A stretch of 64,000 nucleotides of DNA from contig CP126193.1 of the NCBI GenBank assembly GCA_030272155.1, positions 2,232,001-2,296,000 on the forward strand. The letters run 5' to 3'. The DNA is from Tetradesmus obliquus (taxonomy: Eukaryota > Chlorophyta > Chlorophyceae > Sphaeropleales > Scenedesmaceae). Shown piece after piece: positions 5,580 to 64,000 of this stretch (positions are counted from its first letter, which is position 1; every line of letters starts with the position of its first letter). Under the pieces are notes generated by a model. The model did not search any database. It was not told where the DNA came from and saw nothing but the letters and a program-made list of their open reading frames with translations. The position numbers were made by a program, and so were the translations under genes.

Positions 5580-8500
5580 TTGCTGATTGTCCAGCTGGCC
5601 TTCCCGGTGGGGTGGGGACTGTCTCCCCAGCATGGCTTGCCTTGCAGTTCTCCTGGTAGCTGCTCAGCTGCCCTGCTTGTGGGGCTGAGGCTGTCGCTGC
5701 ATGGCTGTGTCCTGCAGTGATGAAGACAGCTGCTCAGCTGCCCTGCTTGTGGCGCTCAGGCTGCATGTCACCCTGACTTGTCCTGCTGCTCTCTTGGCTG
5801 CTGCTCAGCTGCCCTGCTTGTGGGGCTGAGGCTGTCGCTGCATGGCTGTGTCCTGCAGTGATGAAGACATCTGCTCAGCTGCCCTGCTTGTGGGGCTCAG
5901 GCTGCATGTCACCCTGACTTGTCCTGCTGCTCTCTTGGCTGCTGCTCAGCTGCCCTGCTTGTGGGGCTGAGGCTGTCGCTGCATGGCTGTGTCCTGCAGT
6001 GATGAAGACAGCTGCTCAGCTGCCCTGCTTGTGGGGCTCAGGCTGCATGTCACCCTGACTTGTCCTGCTGCTCTCTTGGCTGCTGCTCAGCTGCCCTACT
6101 TGTGGGGCTGAGGCTGTCGCTGCATGGCTGTGTCCTGCAGTGATGAAGACAGCTGCTCAGCTGCCCTGCTTGTGGGGCTCAGGCTGCATGTCACCCTGAC
6201 TTGTCCTGCTGCTCTCTTGGCTGCTGCTCAGCTGCCCTGCTTGTGGGGCTGAGGCTGTCGCTGCATGGCTGTGTCCTGCAGTGATGAAGACAGCTGCTCA
6301 GCTGCCCTGCTTGTGGGGCTCAGGCTGCATGTCACCCTGACTTGTCCTGCTGCTCTCTTGGCTGCTGCTCAGCTGCCCTGCTTGTGGGGCTGGGGCTGTC
6401 GCTGCATGGCTGTGTCCTGCAGTGATGAAGACAGCTGCTCAGCTGCCCTGCTTGTGGGGCTCAGGCTGCATATCACCCTGACTTGTCCTGCTGCTTTCTT
6501 GGCTGCTGCTCAGCTGCCCTGCTTGTGGGGCTGAGGCTGTCGCTGCATGGCTGTGTCCTGCAGTGATGAAGACAGCTGCTCAGCTGCCCTGCTTGTGGGG
6601 CTCAGGCTGCATGTCACCCTGACTTGTCCTGCTGCTCTCTTGGCTGCTGCTCAGCTGCCCTGCTTGTGGGGCTGAGGCTGTCGCTGCATGGCTGTGTCCT
6701 GCAGTGATGAAGACAGCTGCTCAGCTGCCCTGCTTGTGGGGCTCAGGCTGCATGTCACCCTGACTTGTCCTGCTGCTCTCTTGGCTGCTGCTCAGCTGCC
6801 CTGCTTGTGGGGCTGAGGCTGTCGCTGCATGGCTGTGTCCTGCAGTGATGAAGACAGCTGCTCAGCTGCCCTGCTTGTGGGGCTCAGGCTGCATGTCACC
6901 CTGACTTGTCCTGCTGCTCTCTTGGCTGCTGCTCAGCTGCCCTGCTTGTGGGGCTGAGGCTGTCGCTGCATGGCTGTGTCCTGCAGTGATGAAGACAGCT
7001 GCTCAGCTGCCCTGCTTGTGGGGCTCAGGCTGCATGTCACCCTGACTTGTCCTGCTGCTCTCTTGGCTGCTGCTCAGCTGCCCTGCTTGTGGGGCTGAGG
7101 CTGTCGCTGCATGGCTGTGTCCTGCAGTGATGAAGACAGCTGCTCAGCTGCCCTGCTTGTGGGGCTCAGGCTGCATGTCACCCTGACTTGTCCTGCTGCT
7201 CTCTTGGCTGCTGCTCAGCTGCCCTGCTTGTGGGGCTGAGGCTGTCGCTGCATGGCTGTGTCCTGCAGTGATGAAGACAGCTGCTCAGCTGCCCTGCTTG
7301 TGGGGCTCAGGCTGCATGTCACCCTGACTTGTCCTGCTGCTCTCTTGGCTGCTGCTCAGCTGCCCTGCTTGTGGGGCTGAGGCTGTCGCTGCATGGCTGT
7401 GTCCTGCAGTGATGAAGACAGCTGCTCAGCTGCCCTGCTTGTGGGGCTCAGGCTGCATGTCACCCTGACTTGTCCTGCTGCTCTCTTGGCTGCTGCTCAG
7501 CTGCCCTGCTTGTGGGGCTGAGGCTGTCGCTGCATGGCTGTGTCCTGCAGTGATGAAGACAGTTGCTCAGTTGCCCTGCTTGTGGGGCTCAGGCTGCATG
7601 TCACCCTGACTTGTCCTGCTGCTCTCTTGGCTGCTGCTCAGCTGCCCTGCTTGTGGGGCTGAGGCTGTCGCTGCATGGCTGTGTCCTGCAGTGATGAAGA
7701 CAGCTGCTCAGCTGCCCGGCTGCCCTTTGCCCTGTAGTTCTCTGGATAGCTGCTCAGCTGCCCTGCTTGTGGGGCTGGGGCTGTCTGTTAACATGCCTGG
7801 TCTTGCAGCTCTTGGGATGACTGCACAGCTGTCCTGCTGACTGCTCAACCTTCCTGCTTGTGGGGCTGTCTGCTAGCATGGCAGGCCATGTGTACCCCTG
7901 TGTATCTGTGCCAGCTGCTCCGTTGTCCTGCTTGTGGAGCCGAGGCTGCCTGTCTTTATGACATTCATTGCTTGTCCTGCTATTCACTTCCCAGCTACTC
8001 AGCTGTCCTGCTTGTGGAGCTGAGGTTTTTGGCTAGCAGATCAGGTCAGCCTTCCTGCTTGTTGGGCCGAAGCCTTCTGCTAGCATGGCATGTCTTGCAG
8101 GTCTCTTGCCAGCTGCTCAGCTGTCCTGCTTGTGGATCTGAGACTGCCTGTCGTCAATGCTTGTCCTGCTGTTCACTTGCCAGCTACTCAGCTGACCTGC
8201 TTGTGGGACTGAGGCGGCCTGTCGTCATTGCTGGTCTTGTTGCTCACTTGCCAGCTCCTCAATTGTCCTGCTAATGGAGCTAAAACTGCATGTCACCATT
8301 GCTTGTCCTGCAATTCTCTTGCCAGCCGCTCGGCTGTCCTGCTTGTGGGCATGAGCTGCAGGTCGTCATTGCTTGTCCTGATGTTACTTGCCAGCTACGC
8401 AGCTGCTATGCCTGTGGAGCTGAGGGTGCCTGTCATCTCTGCTTGTACTGCAGCCTCTTTCCAGCCGCTCAGTTGCCCTGCTTGTGTTGCTGAGGCTGTT

Positions 8501-8720
8501 TGTCGTATTGGCTTGTCTTGCTGTTCCCTTGCAGACTGCTCAGCTGCCCTGCCTGCGGAGCTGGGCCTGCCTGCTAGCATGGCAGGTCTGGCAGCACTTT
8601 TGCCAGCTGTTCAGCTATCTTGCTTGTGCGACTGAGGCTGCCTGCTAGCACGGCTTGCCCTGCAGTTCCCCATACAGTTGCTCAGCTGCCATGCTTTTGA
8701 AGCTGAGGTTGTCTGTCATC
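5580..8720. repeat. Satellite array: about 14 tandem 141-bp units flanked by diverged ~70-bp monomers
   Basis: The marker TGATGAAGAC recurs at 5718, 5859, 6000, 6141 and 6282, and so on to 7692, always 141 bp apart. That is 14 full periods with very few differences. Each unit is a dimer of two related blocks of about 70 bp, both containing GCTCAGCTGCCCTGCTTGTG and differing after the following GGGCT(C/G)AGGCTG. To the right (about 7720-8720) single blocks of about 65-73 bp continue, but strongly diverged from each other. This matches a homogenised dimeric higher-order repeat with older monomers at its edge. 141 is divisible by three, but every frame has a stop in nearly every unit. The short ORF at 6265-6534 exists only because one unit has TGG instead of TGA. 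Non-coding. Confidence 0.9.
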
Positions 8721-9287
8721 ACGTTCTGTACACGTTCTGACCGTAGTGGACTGCAGATAGTTAGCAGCCTGCCACTGCATGGTGTGGCAGAATGGTGCTT
8801 GCCAAGCCTGTCAAGTTGGTGCTGCGCTACTTGAGTGCAGCCAGTGGCGGCTGCCTGTGATGACCTGCTGCATCTACCTACCAGAGGCACAGGGCGGACG
8901 ATAAACTGCAGCTTGATGTGATTCAACATAGTCTGCTGGCGACACATTCATGTCTGGCCAATTCTGGAGGTGTGTTCAGCCTTGCTGATATTGTGTAGAT
9001 GTGCAACCAGGTGACTGGCATGCTTGATTTTGCGCTAGGGATCCCGGTGATATCACTTGTCTAGACAGGGTCACCCTGGCAGTGCCTAGCAGGTGGCCTG
9101 CCTCATGCATGAACCATGCCATGTTGGCTGGTCTAAAAGTCCACTGGTGACATTCTGAGCTATTGACAGTGAGATAGCAGTTTGCAGTGGCTTCAATGTG
9201 TACGTCCTTGAGTAATGCAGTAATCAAACTATTACACTGATGATGATTGCCTGGCTACACACCCGTACCACATTTCTGTGGTTGTGC
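8721..9287. other. Spacer between satellite array and recombinase gene
   Basis: I see no coding sequence or structured element. One stretch (about 9164-9180) resembles TTGACAGT(G/C)AGAT motifs found at about 20735 and 32655. Confidence 0.4.
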
Positions 9288-53020: not shown

Positions 53021-54690
53021 ATAGCAGCAGCAAAAGGAGGCCTGGCAGACAGCAGAAGCAACAAGTTTGGTAAGGTGCTGCGCTTGCAGGCCACAGCTGG
53101 GACTTTGTTGCAGATGCAGCACCTGCCTGCATGGTGCAGATACATGCAAACAGCTTTGGCGCATCACACCCGCAGCAAGCCCAAAGGGGACAGCACGCGA
53201 CAACCTTTGTTATACATTGCTGAGTAATGGTTGTGTTGCCTGCTGCTTGGTGTGCTTTTCACTTGCAGAACAAGCCGCTGATTCCTCAGGTGGTGCTGCT
53301 GCTAGCCGGAGGGCTCACTGAGCACGTGTTCAACCAGCATAAGGTGTGCACCTGCTGCTGCTGCTGCTACTGCTGTCGGCAGAAAAATGTCGGCTGCATG
53401 CAGCATGTGCAATGTCCCAAACATATTCTGCAGCAGTGAGTCTGATTGTGACTGTTGTGTTATCAGGTTCCAGGTGCTGCTGCCAGCCAGCAGGCTGCCT
53501 CTCTGTTTCAGCATTCCATCAGCTATCAGCATGTCTGCTTCCTCGTATCCCATGCTAAGCAACAGGCTCTGGTCGTGCATCAACCCTGCTGCTGCTGCTG
53601 TTCTGACTTGCTCCACTGCTGCTGCTGCTGCTGCTGCTGCAGGCCATCATGCCCACACTGGCCAGCTTCCAGGCACCTGCTGTCGCCCTGGCACTCAACA
53701 GCAACGTCAGGCCAGGTGCGCTGCTGCTGCTGCTGCTGCTGCTGCTGATGTGTGCACTTCCTGACACCTTCTCTCATATGCACTGTGATAGCACACACAA
53801 GATGGAGCATAGTGTGGATGGTGTGTGCTTTTCTACGCATCTCGTTGTGGTGCCCTGCCACCCCTGGGCAATTCCAGCTGCAGAAATACATGTACCTTTT
53901 ACATGTATCCTCGGACTGGCCGCACTCGGTCAAGTATGTCATTCCAACGTTTGCGCTTTTGCACATCTGCAGGCCACAGCCTGGGGGCGCTGCTGGGCGT
54001 GCCGCAGATTATCTGTCTATACTTGCACTGGCCACGCTCGGTCAAGTATGTCACTCCAACTCTTGCGCAACTGTTTGTTTGCTGCAGGCCATAGCGTGGG
54101 GGCGCTGCTGGGCGTGCCGCAGAACCTGTGTATCTGCACTCGCAGCTGCTCAGTTGATCGTGTCATTGTCATTCCCACTCTTCGCACTTCTGCCTGCAGG
54201 CCACAGCGTGGGGGCGCTGCTGGGCGTGCCGCAGAACCGCAAGCGCAAGCGGGAGGCACAGGCAGAGGCTGAGTCAGCTAAAGAGGCACGAGCAGGCCAG
54301 CCGCCGTTCCTGCCGGAGCATTATGTGCTGACGCTGCGGGAGATGCAGCAGCTTGAGTACCCAGTGCCTACTTTGGGTGATGATGGTATGCTGCACTGCC
54401 CGCCAGGCTTTGTGTCGACTGCTGGCCGCGCTGCTGGCAGCAGCAGTGGTAGCAGCAGCAGTGACAGCAGCGGCAGCGAGGATGGCGGGGCACAGCGGCA
54501 GCAGCAGCAGCAGCAGGCGAACGGGTGCACGGAGCACACCAGCAATGGTGATTCAGCGGCGGCGGCAGCAGCAGCCGCAGGTGCCGACAACAGCACACAG
54601 CTGCAGCCTTGTAAGCGCCAGAAAACAACCACAGCAGCCGCACCAGCAGACACAGCAGCAGGCGTTCCACCACCACCGCAACAGCACAGC

Positions 54691-57860: not shown

Positions 57861-59638
57861 CAACATGAGATGGAGCTGCTTCTCGCGAGGTACTACCTGG
57901 TAGCATCTGTGGCAGTTGGCAGGGAGGCATTGATGCAAGCGGGGTGGCGTCTTTTTGAGCATGCAGTCTTGGTGGTGTGCTCTTCCAGAGTGTGCAGCAT
58001 GTGTGAGGTGGAGTTGCGCATGCGCATCTGCTTTTATCTGGCGCCAGATGGAGGTCTGCCAGAGTCCTTGATCTGTGGAAACCACTCGTGATTGTACTTG
58101 CTGGTCAACGTGTTTTTTTTTCACTGCTGGTCAACGTGGACGCAAATCTGCTTGCATATGACGGCACAGGCAGCGTTACAGATCGGCAGCTGCTGTGTTG
58201 CAACACTGGCAGCACGTGGCGCAACTGGCAGCACGTGGCACAACTGGCAGCAGTATCGGCACGAGCCCACAGCATGCATTGCATCTGCTGTACCTTGCAC
58301 TGCCCGGAGACGACCGTCCTGCAGTGTGTGCTCGGGAAACAGTTGCGTATGAGCCTGTACACTCTTCAAGGAGCATGCGACTTGCGCAGTACACTGCATA
58401 CATTGCAAAGTAAACGTGGTGCAACATGCATGTGCCGCTGTCAGCGGCTGCCTGATTTTGCAGGCCACTGAACCCAGGACAGCTCCACTCTACATACAAA
58501 GCAACTAGCAGGCACTCCTGTGCCCATGCCAACTGCCATCAGCAGACACAAATATCATGTCTGCAAGAGATGCATGTGTTGCAGCATGTGTTGCATACAC
58601 ACCTGGTGCAACCAGACACTATAGACACAACTGGAACGCACCCCAGGCTGGCCAGGCACCCTCATACAGCAGCCCATGATGCCAGCACTGCACTGCATGC
58701 TGTTTGCGCCTACAACTCTACAGCCACAAATGTCAAGAGACTCTGGACGTTTTTTATGCAGCCATAGACCACAGCAGCCACGGCTGTTGGCAAATCAAAG
58801 CAAAAGGGCATGCTTCTATCAAGCAATACAAACAGTGCTGCACCAGCTAAAGTACTTTGCAAGCGCAACCAACCGTCCGTCTTTGTCGCATTCAGAACAT
58901 GAACTGCAATCTGCGCTTCCACCTCCCGCCTGATGTTACGGGTCCATATACGCATGAAGACAGCATGCGCAGCTGCGCAATGCAACACGCCAGCAGCCCA
59001 CGGCACCTCACAAGAGCGCTCTTGCTAGCAGGTGCGGGGTTGCTCCTCACAATTTCCTGCAGCAGCAGGACAGACACATGCAGTCTGTGTCCTGACCACA
59101 CACCTGCACAGCTACGCTGAGTGCATCCGCACCCAAGTCGCAGCGAACATCTGCACCAGGCCCACCCCAACCCTGCAACCACACAATAACAGTTCGCACC
59201 CCCACGCCTGCAGTATCTGCAAAACATCCCCCGCCCATCACCCAACAGCAGCCTCAGCAACAAGTGCACATCGCTCTGCAGTACCCAACTCTCGCCATGG
59301 CCTCACTGCACTTGGGAGCCGCGCCTGCAGTCTCCTGCAAACACCCCTCGCCCACCACCCAACCAACCATGACCATGCACCACCACCCACGCCATGGACT
59401 CGCTGCAGCTGAAGGGCTTCCATCTTTACCAGCTGCCCCATAACTGCATGTCCAGCAGCCGCACGCCTGCAGCCTCCTGCAAACATCCACCACCCAGCAG
59501 CAACCCCCGCAAATGACCACACGCCACTCACGCCATGGCCTCGCTGCTCTTGGAGGGCTACATTGCAGTGTCCTGCAAGCACCCCTCGCCCACCACCCAC
59601 CCAGCAGCAGAGCCAGCAAACATCCTAACACACGCCAC
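57861..59638. other. Convergent intergenic region, includes the G6PD 3' UTR with repeated terminal-exon pieces
   Basis: No supported gene. Between about 58.9 and 59.6 kb the plus strand is CA-rich, as expected for the 3' UTR of the minus-strand G6PD gene. Three decaying copies of the end of the last G6PD exon lie at about 59521-59562, 59385-59425 and 59289-59320. A short tandem of GGCAGCACGTGGC-like units is at about 58208-58250. Confidence 0.5.
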
Positions 59639-60874
59639 TCACGCCATGGCCTCGCTGCTCTTGGAGGGCTTCCATGTGTAGCGCGCCGTGCGCTTGTAGC
59701 CTGCAGCCGCAAGGAACGCGTCCTGGCTGGGCGGCCCCCTGCTGCCATACTCGTAGGGCTCCGGCTGCACCTCGCCGCGGTCGATGGCGTGCAGCACGGG
59801 CGTGAAGATGGACCAGGCCGCGCGCAGCTCATCGCGGCGCACAAAGTGCTGCTGGTCGCCCCTGCAAGGGTTGGCACAGAGTTGCGGCAGCAGTATGTGT
59901 CGTCACGGCAGGTGCATGGCATGAGCATTGCCTTTGGAGGAAGAGGGTGGCTGGGCGCAGGTGCTTGCGTGACACTGGCGCAGGCAGTTGCACGCGGCGC
60001 ACAAAGTGCTGCTGGTCGCCCCTGCAGGAATGTTTGTAAAGGATTGCAGCAGCGGGTGGGGCGCAGCAGGTGAATGAACGTGAGCAGGGAGGTGGGTGGG
60101 TGCAGATGGGTTTGTGTGACACTGGTGTAGGCAGCTCGTTGCGGCGCACAAAGTGCTGCTGGTCGCCGCTGCGGCATTGGCAACAGCAGGGGGTGCATTT
60201 ATGCCGTGGTCAGCTGGTGCCTGCGTATGTGGAAGGAGAATGGAGGCGGCTGCAAAGCGCGGGGGCCCAAGATGCAGCCGCACTCGGCGCAGCGGCAGCC
60301 GCCGCACCCATGTGCACGCCTGGCACTACCACAGCACCTCACATCAAAAGGCATTGCTGTGAGCATACTGCTTGCCACCCTCCACCCTGTCTGCGCAGCA
60401 GGGTGCCGCATTACTGTATCAGGCTTCCGGCTTCAGCCCCGTCTCACCAGCACACCCGCCCACCGGATGCAGTCCAGGATTAGTCGCTCGTATGAGTCGG
60501 GGATCATCAGGATTCAAACCTGTTGGCTGCGTTGCACTCTGCCTGCGCTGCAAAATGCGCTACGGGCTCTGCACCGTCAGGCATCAGCCCCCAACAGCCG
60601 CGCTGCATGCAGTCCAGGAGGGGTTGCTTGCTGCCCCAACACTGCTTGTTGCACCCCAACGCTGCGCCACATACGCATTGGCCCCATCCCACCCAGCACA
60701 CCAGCACACCCTCTCACCGGATGCAGTCCAGGATGAGTCGCTCGTATGCGTCGGGGATCTTCACGTCTGCGTAGCGCTCGCCGTAGCTGAGGTCCAGCTC
60801 GCTCATCTCAGTGTCCATCTCCAGCCCGGGCTTCTTGACCACCATCTTGGCGTAGATGGCCTCGCCTGGAGGAT

Positions 60875-60917
<43 letters not shown>

Positions 60918-63900
60918 GTCAGCAGGTGTCCATCTCCAGCCCGGGCTTCTTGACCACCATCTTGGCATAGATGGCCTCGCCTGGCAGCAGCAGCAGCAGC
61001 AGCAGCAAGACAGCAGCAGCAAGTCAGTAGGTGTCCATCTCCAGCCCAGGCTTCTTGACCACCATAATGGCATAGATGGCCTCGCCTGGTGGCGGCAGCA
61101 GCAGCCGCAGTGGGGGCAGCAGCACGTTGAGCTTCATTGTCGACTGCACGGTTGTAGGCAGCCAGCGGCAGTGGAACTCGACAAGCACCCGTGGCCTGTC
61201 GCAGCAGCCAAACGCCATGGCAACAGCAGTGATTGCAATCCAGCTGCTACAACCAGAGTTCTATCCGCGTCAGCTACTTGCACCGCACCAACATTACTCG
61301 CTTCATGACTTTACGGACCCGGTGAAATGCAAGGCTTTCACACGGCGCCCTTCGCTGATCATGAACCCTGCCTGCTGCTCACCAGGCTGCAGCCGCATCA
61401 CAAACTCGTTGCGCATATTCTGGTGCGTGCCGTGCGGCCCAAACAGCGGCACGGGGTTCTCATGCAGCTGCATGCGCACCACCACGCTGCGCTCATTCAG
61501 CGCTTTGCCCGCGCGCAGCACGAAGGGCACACCCGCCCAGCGCTCGTTGTTGATGGCCAGGCGGCAGGCGGCGTAGGTGGGGGCGCGGGAGCCCTCGGGG
61601 ACTGTGGGGTCCTCCAGGTAGCCTGGCTGGTCGTTGCCTGCGGTTGAAATAGTAGGGGAAATTGTTTTGGATGTGAAGTGCAGCAGCAGCAGGCGTACAG
61701 GTATAATAGGGTGTCAGATGACGGCGGGAGCCCTCGGGGACTGTGGGGTCTTCCAGATAGCCCGGCTGGTCATTGCCTGCGGTTTGAATAGTTAGGAAAC
61801 AATATTCAACTTAGGAAGTGCGGCGGCAGCAAATGTAGAGGTGTGATAGGGTGTCAGATGACGGCAGGAGCCCTCGGGGACTGTGGGGTCTTCCAGGTAG
61901 CCCGGCTGGTCGTTGCCTGCAATTCATAACAGAAAGGGGTGGAGCAGGAATTGCGGCAGCAGCAGGGGCATGGTTGTGATGGGACAGCGCCAGTGTCCTA
62001 GGTAGTCTGGCTGCCCAACGCCTGCCGTTAGCAGTGCAACAGGCAGGTGTGCAACAGCAGGCGGCATACGTGTTTGTCAGGCCCTCCACATATCCCAACT
62101 GACCAATGCCTGGCACCTGTACACAACACCATGTGCATTAGAACGTAGACCCGCATGTTCACAAGGCCTCAGCTTTCATAAAGTCACCCACCTGCCACGT
62201 ACTGGCCCAGCACCACGTCCTGCAGGTTGAGTGGCGCAATGCAGCGCAGCACCAACATGGACACACAGGCAATACATACAAACAGCCCAGCCAGATTTGC
62301 ACCTGCCACTTACTGCCCCAACACCATGTCCTGCAGCCCCAGCGTAGCAACGCAACACAGAATGTGCTCAAATTGCACTAAACACAGCACCAAACATAGG
62401 CGCACTCATCTGCAACAGTGTGTTGCCCACCTGCCACGTACTGTCCCAGCACCACGTCCTGCAGGTTGAGCGGCGCGATGCAGCGCAGCACCTTGCACTT
62501 CTCGTCGCGGATGTCGTCGGGGTGGTTGCTCACGGGGCACTCCATGGCGATCAGCGCCAGCAGCTGCGCAGCACAGCATGCACACAAGCAGGCAGCAAAC
62601 AAGCAGGCAGGAACGCAGTTGTGAAGCATGGCAATTGGGGCGCTCCATGGCGATCAGCGCCAGCAGCTGCGCAGCACAGCCAGAGACAAGTAGGCCACAG
62701 ACAAGCAGGCCGCAATGCAGTTGTAAAGCATGGCACTCGACGCACTCCATGGCGATTAGAGCAAGCAGCTGCGCAGCACAGCAGGCAGCAGTGCAGTGCG
62801 TAACACGGCAGAGGTTACACGCACACGCCACGCACGAGCCGCGCCGTCAAAGTCAGCGACACCCAGCACTGAGTCTACCGCCCCCGCACCTGTGTGAGGT
62901 GGTTCTGGATGACGTCCCTGATGATGCCGTAACTGTCAAAGTAGCCGCCACGCCCCTGGCAACAGCAGCAGCAGCAGCAGCAAGCACCACACGGTCCATA
63001 ACTCAGCATCCACCACTACAGCTACAAGGCAACCACAATGCAGGCACAACTCCTGCATTTTCTACTGTGGAATCACTGACTGCTCAGTTTCCTGTGCAGC
63101 GTGACTGCAGCCGAGGACAGCGTCTGCTTGTAAAATAGCAAGATGTAACAAGTTGTAACTGTTTTAACGTGCTGCACCTGTGTGCCAAAGTCCTCCTTGA
63201 AGCTGATCTGTACGTTGTTCACGTAGTGCCTGTTCCACCAGGCGCCAAAGATGGGGTTGGCCCAGCGCATGACCAGCAGGTTCTGTTGACAAAGAGCAAC
63301 AAAGCAGGCACACAGCAGCATGGTGAGCCAGGGTGCTCAAGACAGTGCCATGATGCAGGGTTTGCGCGGAGCTTGCTGGAGTGTGGGATGTGATGCAATG
63401 CGCAAGGGATACGTCACAGCACGCAACTATTGCAGTCGGCTTGCACTCAAACAGCTGCGGCCGCGCCATTTAACAGCCGCAGCAGCTGACTGCCCATCTT
63501 GTCCTTGCGGGGATTATCGCGTCTGTACATACATACACAGATTGACGGGAGGCGTTTCGTTGGCCCTTCCTGCTGCGAGTAGCAATGAGCAGCGCCAGTG
63601 ACATACTTCACAACCCAACTGCCACATCACACTGCAACGGGTGACACATACCCCATCCCGCCGTCTGCCGCACCTGGCTCAGCTCCTTGCCCAGGAAGTG
63701 GTCAGCTGCAGCAGCACAGCCAAACCAATGCCGCAACCACACATCACACATCACACATATCAACAGCGACACAACAGCACAACAGCAAATAACACAACCT
63801 TTGACGGCAATACCTCTGTCAACCACACACCAACAACAGCGCAACAGTAACAACAGCAACATATCCCCGCCAAGCTGCCGCACCTGGCTCAGCTCCTTGC

Positions 63901-64000
63901 CCAGGTAGTGGTCGATGCGGTACAGCTGGTTCTCCGGGAACAGCGCGCCCAGCTGCTCACACAGCGCCTCGCTGCTCTCCAGGTCGTTGCCAAAGGGCTT
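59639..64000 (-). CDS. G6PD: Glucose-6-phosphate 1-dehydrogenase, C-terminal 348 residues (N-terminus outside window)
   Basis: Seven exons, transcript order: 64000-63884 (cut by the window edge), 63282-63178, 62955-62890, 62563-62431, 61637-61383, 60865-60718 and 59861-59639. Phases agree throughout. The active-site motif [12 protein letters not shown] ends the first visible exon and includes the catalytic His. Then come [77 protein letters not shown] and the near-invariant [20 protein letters not shown]. The enzyme oxidises glucose 6-phosphate with NADP+, opening the oxidative pentose phosphate pathway. Whether it is plastidic or cytosolic cannot be judged without the N-terminus. Nearly every exon edge has partial copies in the neighbouring intron (see findings). 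Confidence 0.96.
59834..60173 (-). repeat. Three copies of the last G6PD exon's 5' edge
   Basis: GCGGCGCACAAAGTGCTGCT plus GGTCGCC(C/G)CTGC lies at 59834-59867 (real exon edge), 59994-60027 and 60140-60173. The copies include the AG acceptor region on the minus strand, and neighbouring intron sequence (GTGACACTGG(C/T)G(C/T)AGGCAG) is repeated too. Confidence 0.9.
60461..60765 (-). repeat. Two copies of the sixth visible G6PD exon's 3' edge
   Basis: CACCGGATGCAGTCCAGGAT followed by (G/T)AGTCGCTCGTATG occurs at about 60712-60765 (real) and 60461-60508 (copy in the downstream intron). The copy keeps the donor-side CCGG/GTG junction. Confidence 0.88.
60811..61090 (-). repeat. Three copies of the sixth visible G6PD exon's 5' edge
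   Basis: GTGTCCATCTCCAGCCC(G/A)GG with the rest of a 60-bp block lies at 60811-60870 (real exon and acceptor), 60926-60984 and 61031-61090. The copies are separated by (CAG)n runs. Confidence 0.92.
61587..61920 (-). repeat. Three clear copies of the fifth visible G6PD exon's 5' edge
   Basis: GGAGCCCTCGGGGACTGTGG with about 60 bp around it lies at 61587-61653 (real), 61723-61793 and 61861-61920. The two copies share intron flanks (ATAGGGTGTCAGATGACGGC). Two more decayed versions may lie at about 61990-62035 and 62080-62117. Confidence 0.9.
62187..62487 (-). repeat. Copies of the fourth visible G6PD exon's 3' edge
   Basis: The block around CACCTGCCACGTACTG and CAGCACCACGTCCTGCAGGT lies at 62423-62487 (real exon and donor) and 62187-62254 (about 68 bp, few differences). 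A weaker version is at 62300-62340. Confidence 0.9.
62537..62782 (-). repeat. Three copies of the fourth visible G6PD exon's 5' edge
   Basis: CTCCATGGCGAT(C/T)AG(C/A)GC followed by CAGCTGCGCAGCACAGC lies at 62537-62577 (real), 62641-62680 and 62741-62782, with a period close to 103 bp. Confidence 0.9.
63665..63913 (-). repeat. Two copies of the first visible G6PD exon's 3' edge
   Basis: CTGCCGCACCTGGCTCAGCT with the following CCTTGCCCAGG(A/T)AGTGGTC lies at 63875-63913 (real exon and donor) and 63665-63703, offset by 210 bp. The copy would encode the end of the active-site motif. Confidence 0.9.

What the first reader, a model, noticed from the sequence alone, without database searches (positions are those of the whole stretch)
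59280..63920. Exon-edge duplications at almost every junction of the G6PD gene
At least seven exon edges (first visible exon 3'; fourth 5' and 3'; fifth 5'; sixth 5' and 3'; seventh 5') and the end of the coding region have one to three partial copies in the adjacent intron or 3' UTR. Each copy spans the splice site plus about 30-70 nt of exon and is graded in decay with distance. Exon middles are not copied. This looks like repeated local tandem duplication focused on exon-intron borders, leaving arrays of decoy splice sites. I know of no standard element that explains it. It could serve alternative splicing, or be a by-product of how this genome repairs or replicates such borders.
Basis: seen in the sequence. 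Interest (0 to 1): 0.8.

Follow-up and report, generated by a model that had tools for sequence, protein, structure and literature searches.

The report
Exon-edge copies inside algal introns
In the green alga Tetradesmus obliquus many introns hold short, decaying tandem copies of the edge of the neighbouring exon, splice site included; this looks like a widespread habit of local DNA duplication that lengthens introns rather than a working device.

Summary
In the G6PD gene 7 of the 12 splice edges inside the window (9 of 18 in the gene) and the stop-codon end have partial copies beside them; reversed introns gave none. 'Almost every junction' and 'graded in decay with distance' are overstated. 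The genome matches Tetradesmus obliquus. The pattern is widespread but patchy: 66 of 300 splice edges in loci at fixed positions, 5 of 116 in the window's other genes, 0 of 22 to 15 of 18 in single chaperonin genes. Copies are direct, lie almost only in the adjacent intron on the matching side, and mostly 100-150 bp apart: tandem duplications across the border that lengthen introns. In six verified genes 54 of 58 duplication clusters include exon sequence. Splice dinucleotides survive about as often as neutral decay predicts; no sign of use was found, and one known protein lacks its copy.

Plain duplication and decay leave one result unexplained: in several verified genes exon and copy differ about three times more at third codon positions than at the others. 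Base-flux analysis suggests that the excess arose in real exons, so copies may come from diverged homologous chromosomes. Random loci do not show this excess.

The parts
59639..59861 (-). G6PD exon 10 (stop codon at 59639-59641)
60718..60865 (-). G6PD exon 9
61383..61637 (-). G6PD exon 8
62431..62563 (-). G6PD exon 7
62890..62955 (-). G6PD exon 6 (no edge copies found)
63178..63282 (-). G6PD exon 5 (no edge copies found)
63884..64000 (-). G6PD exon 4 (continues to 64081 beyond the window)
63674..63703 (-). copy of exon 4 3' (donor) edge, 97%, GT kept
62637..62666 (-). copy of exon 7 5' (acceptor) edge, 97%, AG kept
62733..62768 (-). second copy of exon 7 5' edge, 81%, AG kept
62303..62360 (-). 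copy of exon 7 3' (donor) edge, 76%, GT kept
62192..62253 (-). second copy of exon 7 3' edge, 95%, GT kept; the farther one is the better preserved
61724..61776 (-). copy of exon 8 5' (acceptor) edge, 92%, AG kept
61864..61916 (-). second copy of exon 8 5' edge, 94%, AG kept
60926..60980 (-). copy of exon 9 5' (acceptor) edge, 98%, AG kept
61031..61085 (-). second copy of exon 9 5' edge, 93%, AG kept
60464..60509 (-). copy of exon 9 3' (donor) edge, 93%, GT kept
59979..60021 (-). copy of exon 10 5' (acceptor) edge, 86%, AG kept
60131..60167 (-). second copy of exon 10 5' edge, 95%, AG kept
59518..59559 (-). copy of the stop-codon end of the coding region (42 nt, identical to 59629-59670)
59377..59418 (-). 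second copy of the stop-codon end (74%)
59280..59321 (-). third copy of the stop-codon end (71%)

Best explanation
Shown: segments of roughly 100-150 bp that straddle an exon border are duplicated head to tail in this genome. The copy that stays joined to the exon remains the working edge; the other, with its splice site and some 20-90 nt of exon, lies in the intron (or 3' UTR), makes the intron longer and diverges. Inferred: the copies have no function, and duplications inside exons are mostly removed by selection. Inferred, less sure: many arise in repair of breaks near an exon edge, in which the end is extended on the homologous chromosome past the exon into a diverged intron, finds no homology to rejoin, and is end-joined, leaving the old edge in the intron and a new edge from the other haplotype on the exon. 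That would explain why borders are favoured and why copies differ from the exon mostly at silent sites.
For: Edge copies: 58 of 96 edges in G6PD and five chaperonin genes (at least three of them picked because repeats were visible, so a high figure); 8 of 54 in three further chaperonin genes and 7 of 14 in the rest of one already sampled; 66 of 300 in 19 loci that gave edges, of 20 at fixed positions; reversed-intron control 0 each time. 5' edges match the upstream intron in 33 of 48 cases (downstream 2 of 48, other introns 0 of 356), 3' edges the downstream one in 25 of 48 (upstream 2 of 48, others 0 of 356); one inverted hit in 904 minus-strand searches. 103 of 111 copies reach within 3 nt of the edge. 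70 of 103 spacings are 100-150 bp, median 135; local repeats in random loci peak at 100-160 bp and again at 220-280. Introns without copies have median 304 nt (148), with one 429 (35), with two or more 606 (25). Splice dinucleotides kept in 94 of 103 copies against 0.887 expected from their divergence. Gaps in copies are of 1 or 2 nt, none of 3 (24 gaps). For the homologous-chromosome step: third-position differences 18.7% against 5.8% elsewhere, ratio 3.2 (95% 2.5-4.1; simulated neutral model 1.62) over 132 copies; the copies' own third-position rate is like that of positions 1-2 (0.88, 0.35-1.47), the rest being a balanced GC/AT exchange typical of codon-biased exons.
Against: The third-position excess is absent from ab initio genes in random loci (ratio 1.62), weak or absent in some verified genes (C9 1.6, first part of C14 0.7; C8 and C3 about 1.5-1.7 from the rates), and strong in others (C16 5.2, C12 3.8, C15 3.2; rest of C14 about 4). 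Only two haplotypes exist in a diploid, yet some arrays hold three or four distinct silent versions. No second haplotype or strain could be examined. Intron flanks of copies match those of the exon clearly in only 52 of 103 cases (control 57 of 300). Premature stops are fewer than expected (4 against about 10). In predicted exons of random loci 15% of interior points are spanned by local duplications (some are copies miscalled as exons or repeat-rich proteins), so absence of duplications inside exons is shown only for G6PD (3 of 490 points).
Confidence: 0.55

Rival explanations
1. Plain random tandem duplication plus selection: units of about 120 bp arise anywhere; those inside exons are purged, those in introns or across borders are neutral, and exon-derived parts stay recognisable longer. 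No special border mechanism and no exchange between haplotypes.
For: Local duplications are also common in intergenic DNA (0.15 of points against 0.19-0.20 at edges); with short introns 41-72% of random units would cross a border; random loci show a codon-position ratio near the neutral one (1.62).
Against: 54 of 58 clusters in verified genes include exon sequence, more than that expectation; the third-position excess in verified genes exceeds what one exon lineage and neutral copies can give.
Confidence: 0.25
2. The copies are used: they are alternative exon edges kept by selection for their amino-acid sequence and splice sites.
For: Exon-copy and copy-copy differences are mostly silent in several genes; 30 of 106 copies have no change at codon positions 1-2; few stops; splice dinucleotides kept in 94 of 103 and 23 of 24 copies.
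Against: 21 of 106 copies carry frameshifting gaps and no gap has three bases; 27 copies already dead by frameshift, stop or lost site still show the pattern (ratio 2.6); the copies' own third-position rate is not raised; no consistent donor was seen at the inner end of acceptor copies (read by eye); 35 of 103 spacings are multiples of three, as by chance; in random loci only 51 of 82 copies keep the dinucleotide; the known D1 protease protein lacks its copy.
Confidence: 0.15
3. Assembly artefact from collapsed or mis-joined alleles.
For: One S. obliquus assembly is about twice the size of another (PMC5552973, whole text, no reason given there), and a related strain is called likely diploid with separated alleles (PMC7955037, passages).
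Against: Copies differ from each other and from the exon to many degrees, lie on the matching side, and occur on 16 of the 17 contigs (the one locus on C17 gave no edges to test).
Confidence: 0.03
4. A mobile element or introner family.
For: Repeated units in introns.
Against: Copies match their own exon only: a DNA search with 201 bases around exon 9 listed four places, all in this gene (one unit tested), and edges do not match other introns of the same gene (0 of 356 for each edge type).
Confidence: 0.02

Closest known systems
Tandem duplication across an intron-exon boundary in a potato RdRp gene (Ma et al. 2016, PMC4974935; outline and abstract seen)
   Same: A tandem duplication that crosses an intron-exon border and leaves an old exonic piece in intron sequence.
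   Different: One event that made a new intron; here many events per gene that lengthen introns. Whether any intron here is new was not tested, for lack of relatives.
[quoted passage not shown] review PMC3443670, passages seen)
   Same: Tandem duplication multiplies splice signals.
   Different: That model duplicates an exonic AGGT to create an intron; here a splice site already in use is copied with part of its intron.
Tandem exon duplication and mutually exclusive exons (recalled, no call)
   Same: Exon sequence repeated in a neighbouring intron.
   Different: Whole exons with both splice sites there; here partial edges with one splice site.
Templated or microhomology-mediated tandem duplication in break repair (recalled, no call)
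   Same: Short local direct duplications with arbitrary ends.
   Different: As far as recalled, not centred on exon borders; the link to diverged homologous chromosomes is a proposal here.

Membership tests
Local tandem duplication | Direct orientation, next to the source | tested here: met
   Adjacent intron on the matching side in 33 of 48 and 25 of 48 cases; other side 2 of 48 each; other introns 0 of 356 each; one inverted hit in 904 minus-strand searches
Local tandem duplication | The whole unit, intron part included, is homologous between copies | tested here: inconclusive
   Intron-side flanks match (z>3) in 52 of 103 copies against 57 of 300 unrelated intron ends; spacers are mostly little better than shuffled; some arrays are whole-unit repeats, e.g. 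96% over 176 bp in L029
[quoted passage not shown]
   All G6PD copies lie between the used donor and acceptor of an intron and the protein is uninterrupted; no relatives to tell new introns from old
Functional alternative splice sites | Use in RNA | not testable with these tools
   No transcripts available; one known protein lacks the copy
Functional alternative splice sites | Splice dinucleotides kept beyond neutral expectation | tested here: not met
   94 of 103 (0.913) against 0.887 expected in the first set; 23 of 24 in the second (no expectation computed); 51 of 82 in random loci
Introner or mobile element | Same sequence in unrelated genes | tested here: not met
   One unit searched in the whole genome, four places listed, all in this gene

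The most novel reading that the evidence does not exclude
In a diploid or hybridising alga with deeply diverged haplotypes, exons are islands of homology in unalignable introns. Repair that starts in an exon on the homologous chromosome runs off the island, cannot rejoin, and leaves a tandem exon edge. Introns would then be archives of exon edges of past haplotypes, and border-centred duplication a general signature of recombination between diverged homologues.
Probability: 0.3. Interest if true: 0.8.

Novelty: new variant of a known kind. Interest (0 to 1): 0.6.

Why it matters
If the sample is representative, about a fifth of splice edges in this alga sit next to recognisable copies of themselves (66 of 300). 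That offers a natural experiment on how the spliceosome picks the right site, a measurable route by which introns grow, and a warning for gene prediction, which readily calls such copies exons (it did here). The silent-site signature, if confirmed, would give a record of recombination between haplotypes.

Tried and rejected
Ab initio gene finding: two versions drifted to many tiny exons. A version trained on codon-biased segments got 18 of 20 G6PD exon ends right with the G6PD region held out of coding training, though its splice-site model came from G6PD, and 18-19 of 20 when not held out; it was used for random loci and the window, where annotation errors remain. There, 22 predicted exons were dropped as likely copies, introns outside 60-3000 nt were left out and low-complexity matches were filtered. 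One edge family of gene C14 was left out of codon counts for an uncertain frame. A global alignment of spacers was uninformative because shuffled spacers scored almost as well. Ungapped comparison of intron flanks exaggerated their divergence and was redone with gaps. Gene conversion from the cell's own exon, and a slower mutation rate in introns, were considered for the silent-site excess: the first should not raise the codon-position ratio above about 1.75, the second conflicts with fast-diverging spacers (reasoning). Indirect selection through conversion was dropped because it would homogenise silent sites. Breakpoint motifs were looked at by eye (ends often at TGC) but not tested. Literature: ten searches listed, apart from the potato case, no title or abstract on such copies; only open-licence papers are held and most hits were seen as listings.

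Full report
What was checked. The window is C3:2232001-2296000 of a 104,662,953-base assembly in 17 contigs. Size and contig number match the entry Tetradesmus obliquus GCA_030272155.1 (104.70 Mb, 17) in a table of PMC12571836 (passages seen), and all 179 typed residues of a D1 protease predicted from it are identical to PDB chains 1fc6/1fc7 (that these come from Scenedesmus obliquus, an older name, is recalled). G6PD was modelled by hand with 10 exons and verified by profile and by PDB match.

The observation. The 14 G6PD splice-edge copies hold 23-62 nt of exon, and all 14 keep GT or AG. Reversed introns gave no hit. Exons 5 and 6 have no copy, and decay with distance is only a tendency.

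How general it is. PF00118 (chaperonin) hits in the genome showed overlapping profile ranges in neighbouring introns. For five chaperonin genes, some in part, plus G6PD, 58 of 96 edges had 111 copies; at least three of these genes were taken because repeats were visible, so this is a high figure. Three further chaperonin genes gave 8 of 54 edges (0 of 22, 4 of 12, 4 of 20), and the rest of one already sampled gave 7 of 14. In loci at fixed positions, with ab initio models, 66 of 300 edges had copies; 19 of the 20 loci gave edges and 16 had a copy. In the window's other genes 5 of 116 edges had one. Pieces of those genes match Pfam TGT, NDK and RNase_T above cut-off; an EFR3 match was below it. 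Differences between nine verified genes are far beyond chance (chi-square 40, 8 d.f., p 3e-6). Introns with copies are longer.

What the copies are. 5' edges match the upstream intron and 3' edges the downstream one, on the direct strand, apart from two cross-matches of each kind and one inverted match; no other intron of the same gene matched in 356 searches for each edge type. Of 103 spacings between successive edges 70 are 100-150 bp, median 135, and local repeats in the random loci peak at 100-160 bp with a second peak near double. This is head-to-tail duplication across the border. Of 58 duplication clusters in the six first genes, 54 include at least 12 nt of exon and four lie wholly in introns; uniform placement of 90-150 nt units in introns of 250-350 nt would give 41-72%. 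Against a strict border focus stands: in random loci the share of points spanned by a local duplication was 0.19-0.20 at edges, 0.15 in intergenic DNA, 0.15 in predicted exon interiors and 0.09 in intron interiors. Exon-middle stretches matched in 2 of 15 searches of adjacent introns, probably as extensions of long edge copies.

Age and constraint. In 106 copies of the first set, exon and copy differ at 5.6%, 6.0% and 19.3% of codon positions 1, 2 and 3. With the second set (132 copies, 72 edges) the ratio of third to other positions is 3.2 (95% 2.5-4.1 over edges; 2.1-4.1 over eight genes), against 1.62 (99.9% limit 2.11) in a simulation in which the exon changes only silently and the copy freely for the same time. 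Copy-copy pairs show the same. Genes differ: C16 5.2, C12 3.8, C15 3.2, G6PD 2.4, C9 1.6, first part of C14 0.7. Selection on the copies would give such an excess, but the frameshifts (23 in 21 of 106 copies), the persistence of the pattern in 27 dead copies (ratio 2.6) and the lack of three-base gaps speak against it, while the shortage of stops (4 against about 10) speaks for it. A flux argument helps: at positions 1 and 2 the copies lose and gain GC at like rates, as noncoding DNA would; at position 3 the net loss of GC gives an own-lineage rate 0.88 (0.35-1.47) of that at positions 1-2, while the remaining differences are balanced between GC and AT, as expected for exons under codon bias. 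So the copies' own changes look neutral and the excess silent changes look exonic, older than the copy. One lineage cannot give that; exon edges from another haplotype could. One S. obliquus assembly is about twice the size of another and a related strain is called likely diploid with separated alleles; the divergence of haplotypes in this species was not found in print or tested. The argument assumes a stationary base composition in exons. In random loci the ratio is 1.62, which is neutral or diluted by wrong exons.

Function. Splice dinucleotides persist in 94 of 103 copies, near the 0.887 expected from the copies' own divergence, in 23 of 24 of the second set and in 51 of 82 in random loci, where divergence is higher. 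In the D1 protease gene an acceptor copy with AG intact lies 94 bp before the exon that encodes VNVARMLVDRGD, and the known protein has the exon's residues, not the copy's. No transcript data were available.

Verdict. A real, widespread but patchy pattern of border-spanning tandem duplication that lengthens introns and leaves decaying decoy splice sites; the duplication is shown, lack of function is inferred, and the use of diverged homologous chromosomes as template is a proposal with a clear test.

Noticed in passing
window 5659-7721: Tandem array of a 141-bp unit, 14.6 copies, 99% matches, with a similar-looking, more decayed 71-bp array at 8084-8721.
   Followed up: no
window 53915-54238: 112-bp unit, 2.9 copies, with a CAG acceptor followed by coding-like sequence, in a gene with an exonuclease domain: probably another exon-edge array.
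   Followed up: partly
L026-L033, introns of chaperonin genes: Sequence before donor copies looks rich in G and T, that after acceptor copies richer in A and C (read by eye); the two intron halves could pair as RNA.
   Followed up: no
L037 against L026+L030: Two chaperonin genes of the same family differ from 0 of 22 to 15 of 18 edges with copies; the cause of hot and cold genes is unknown.
   Followed up: partly
L009 1-1146: About six copies of a unit of about 191 bp, 84-91% alike, outside predicted exons.
   Followed up: no
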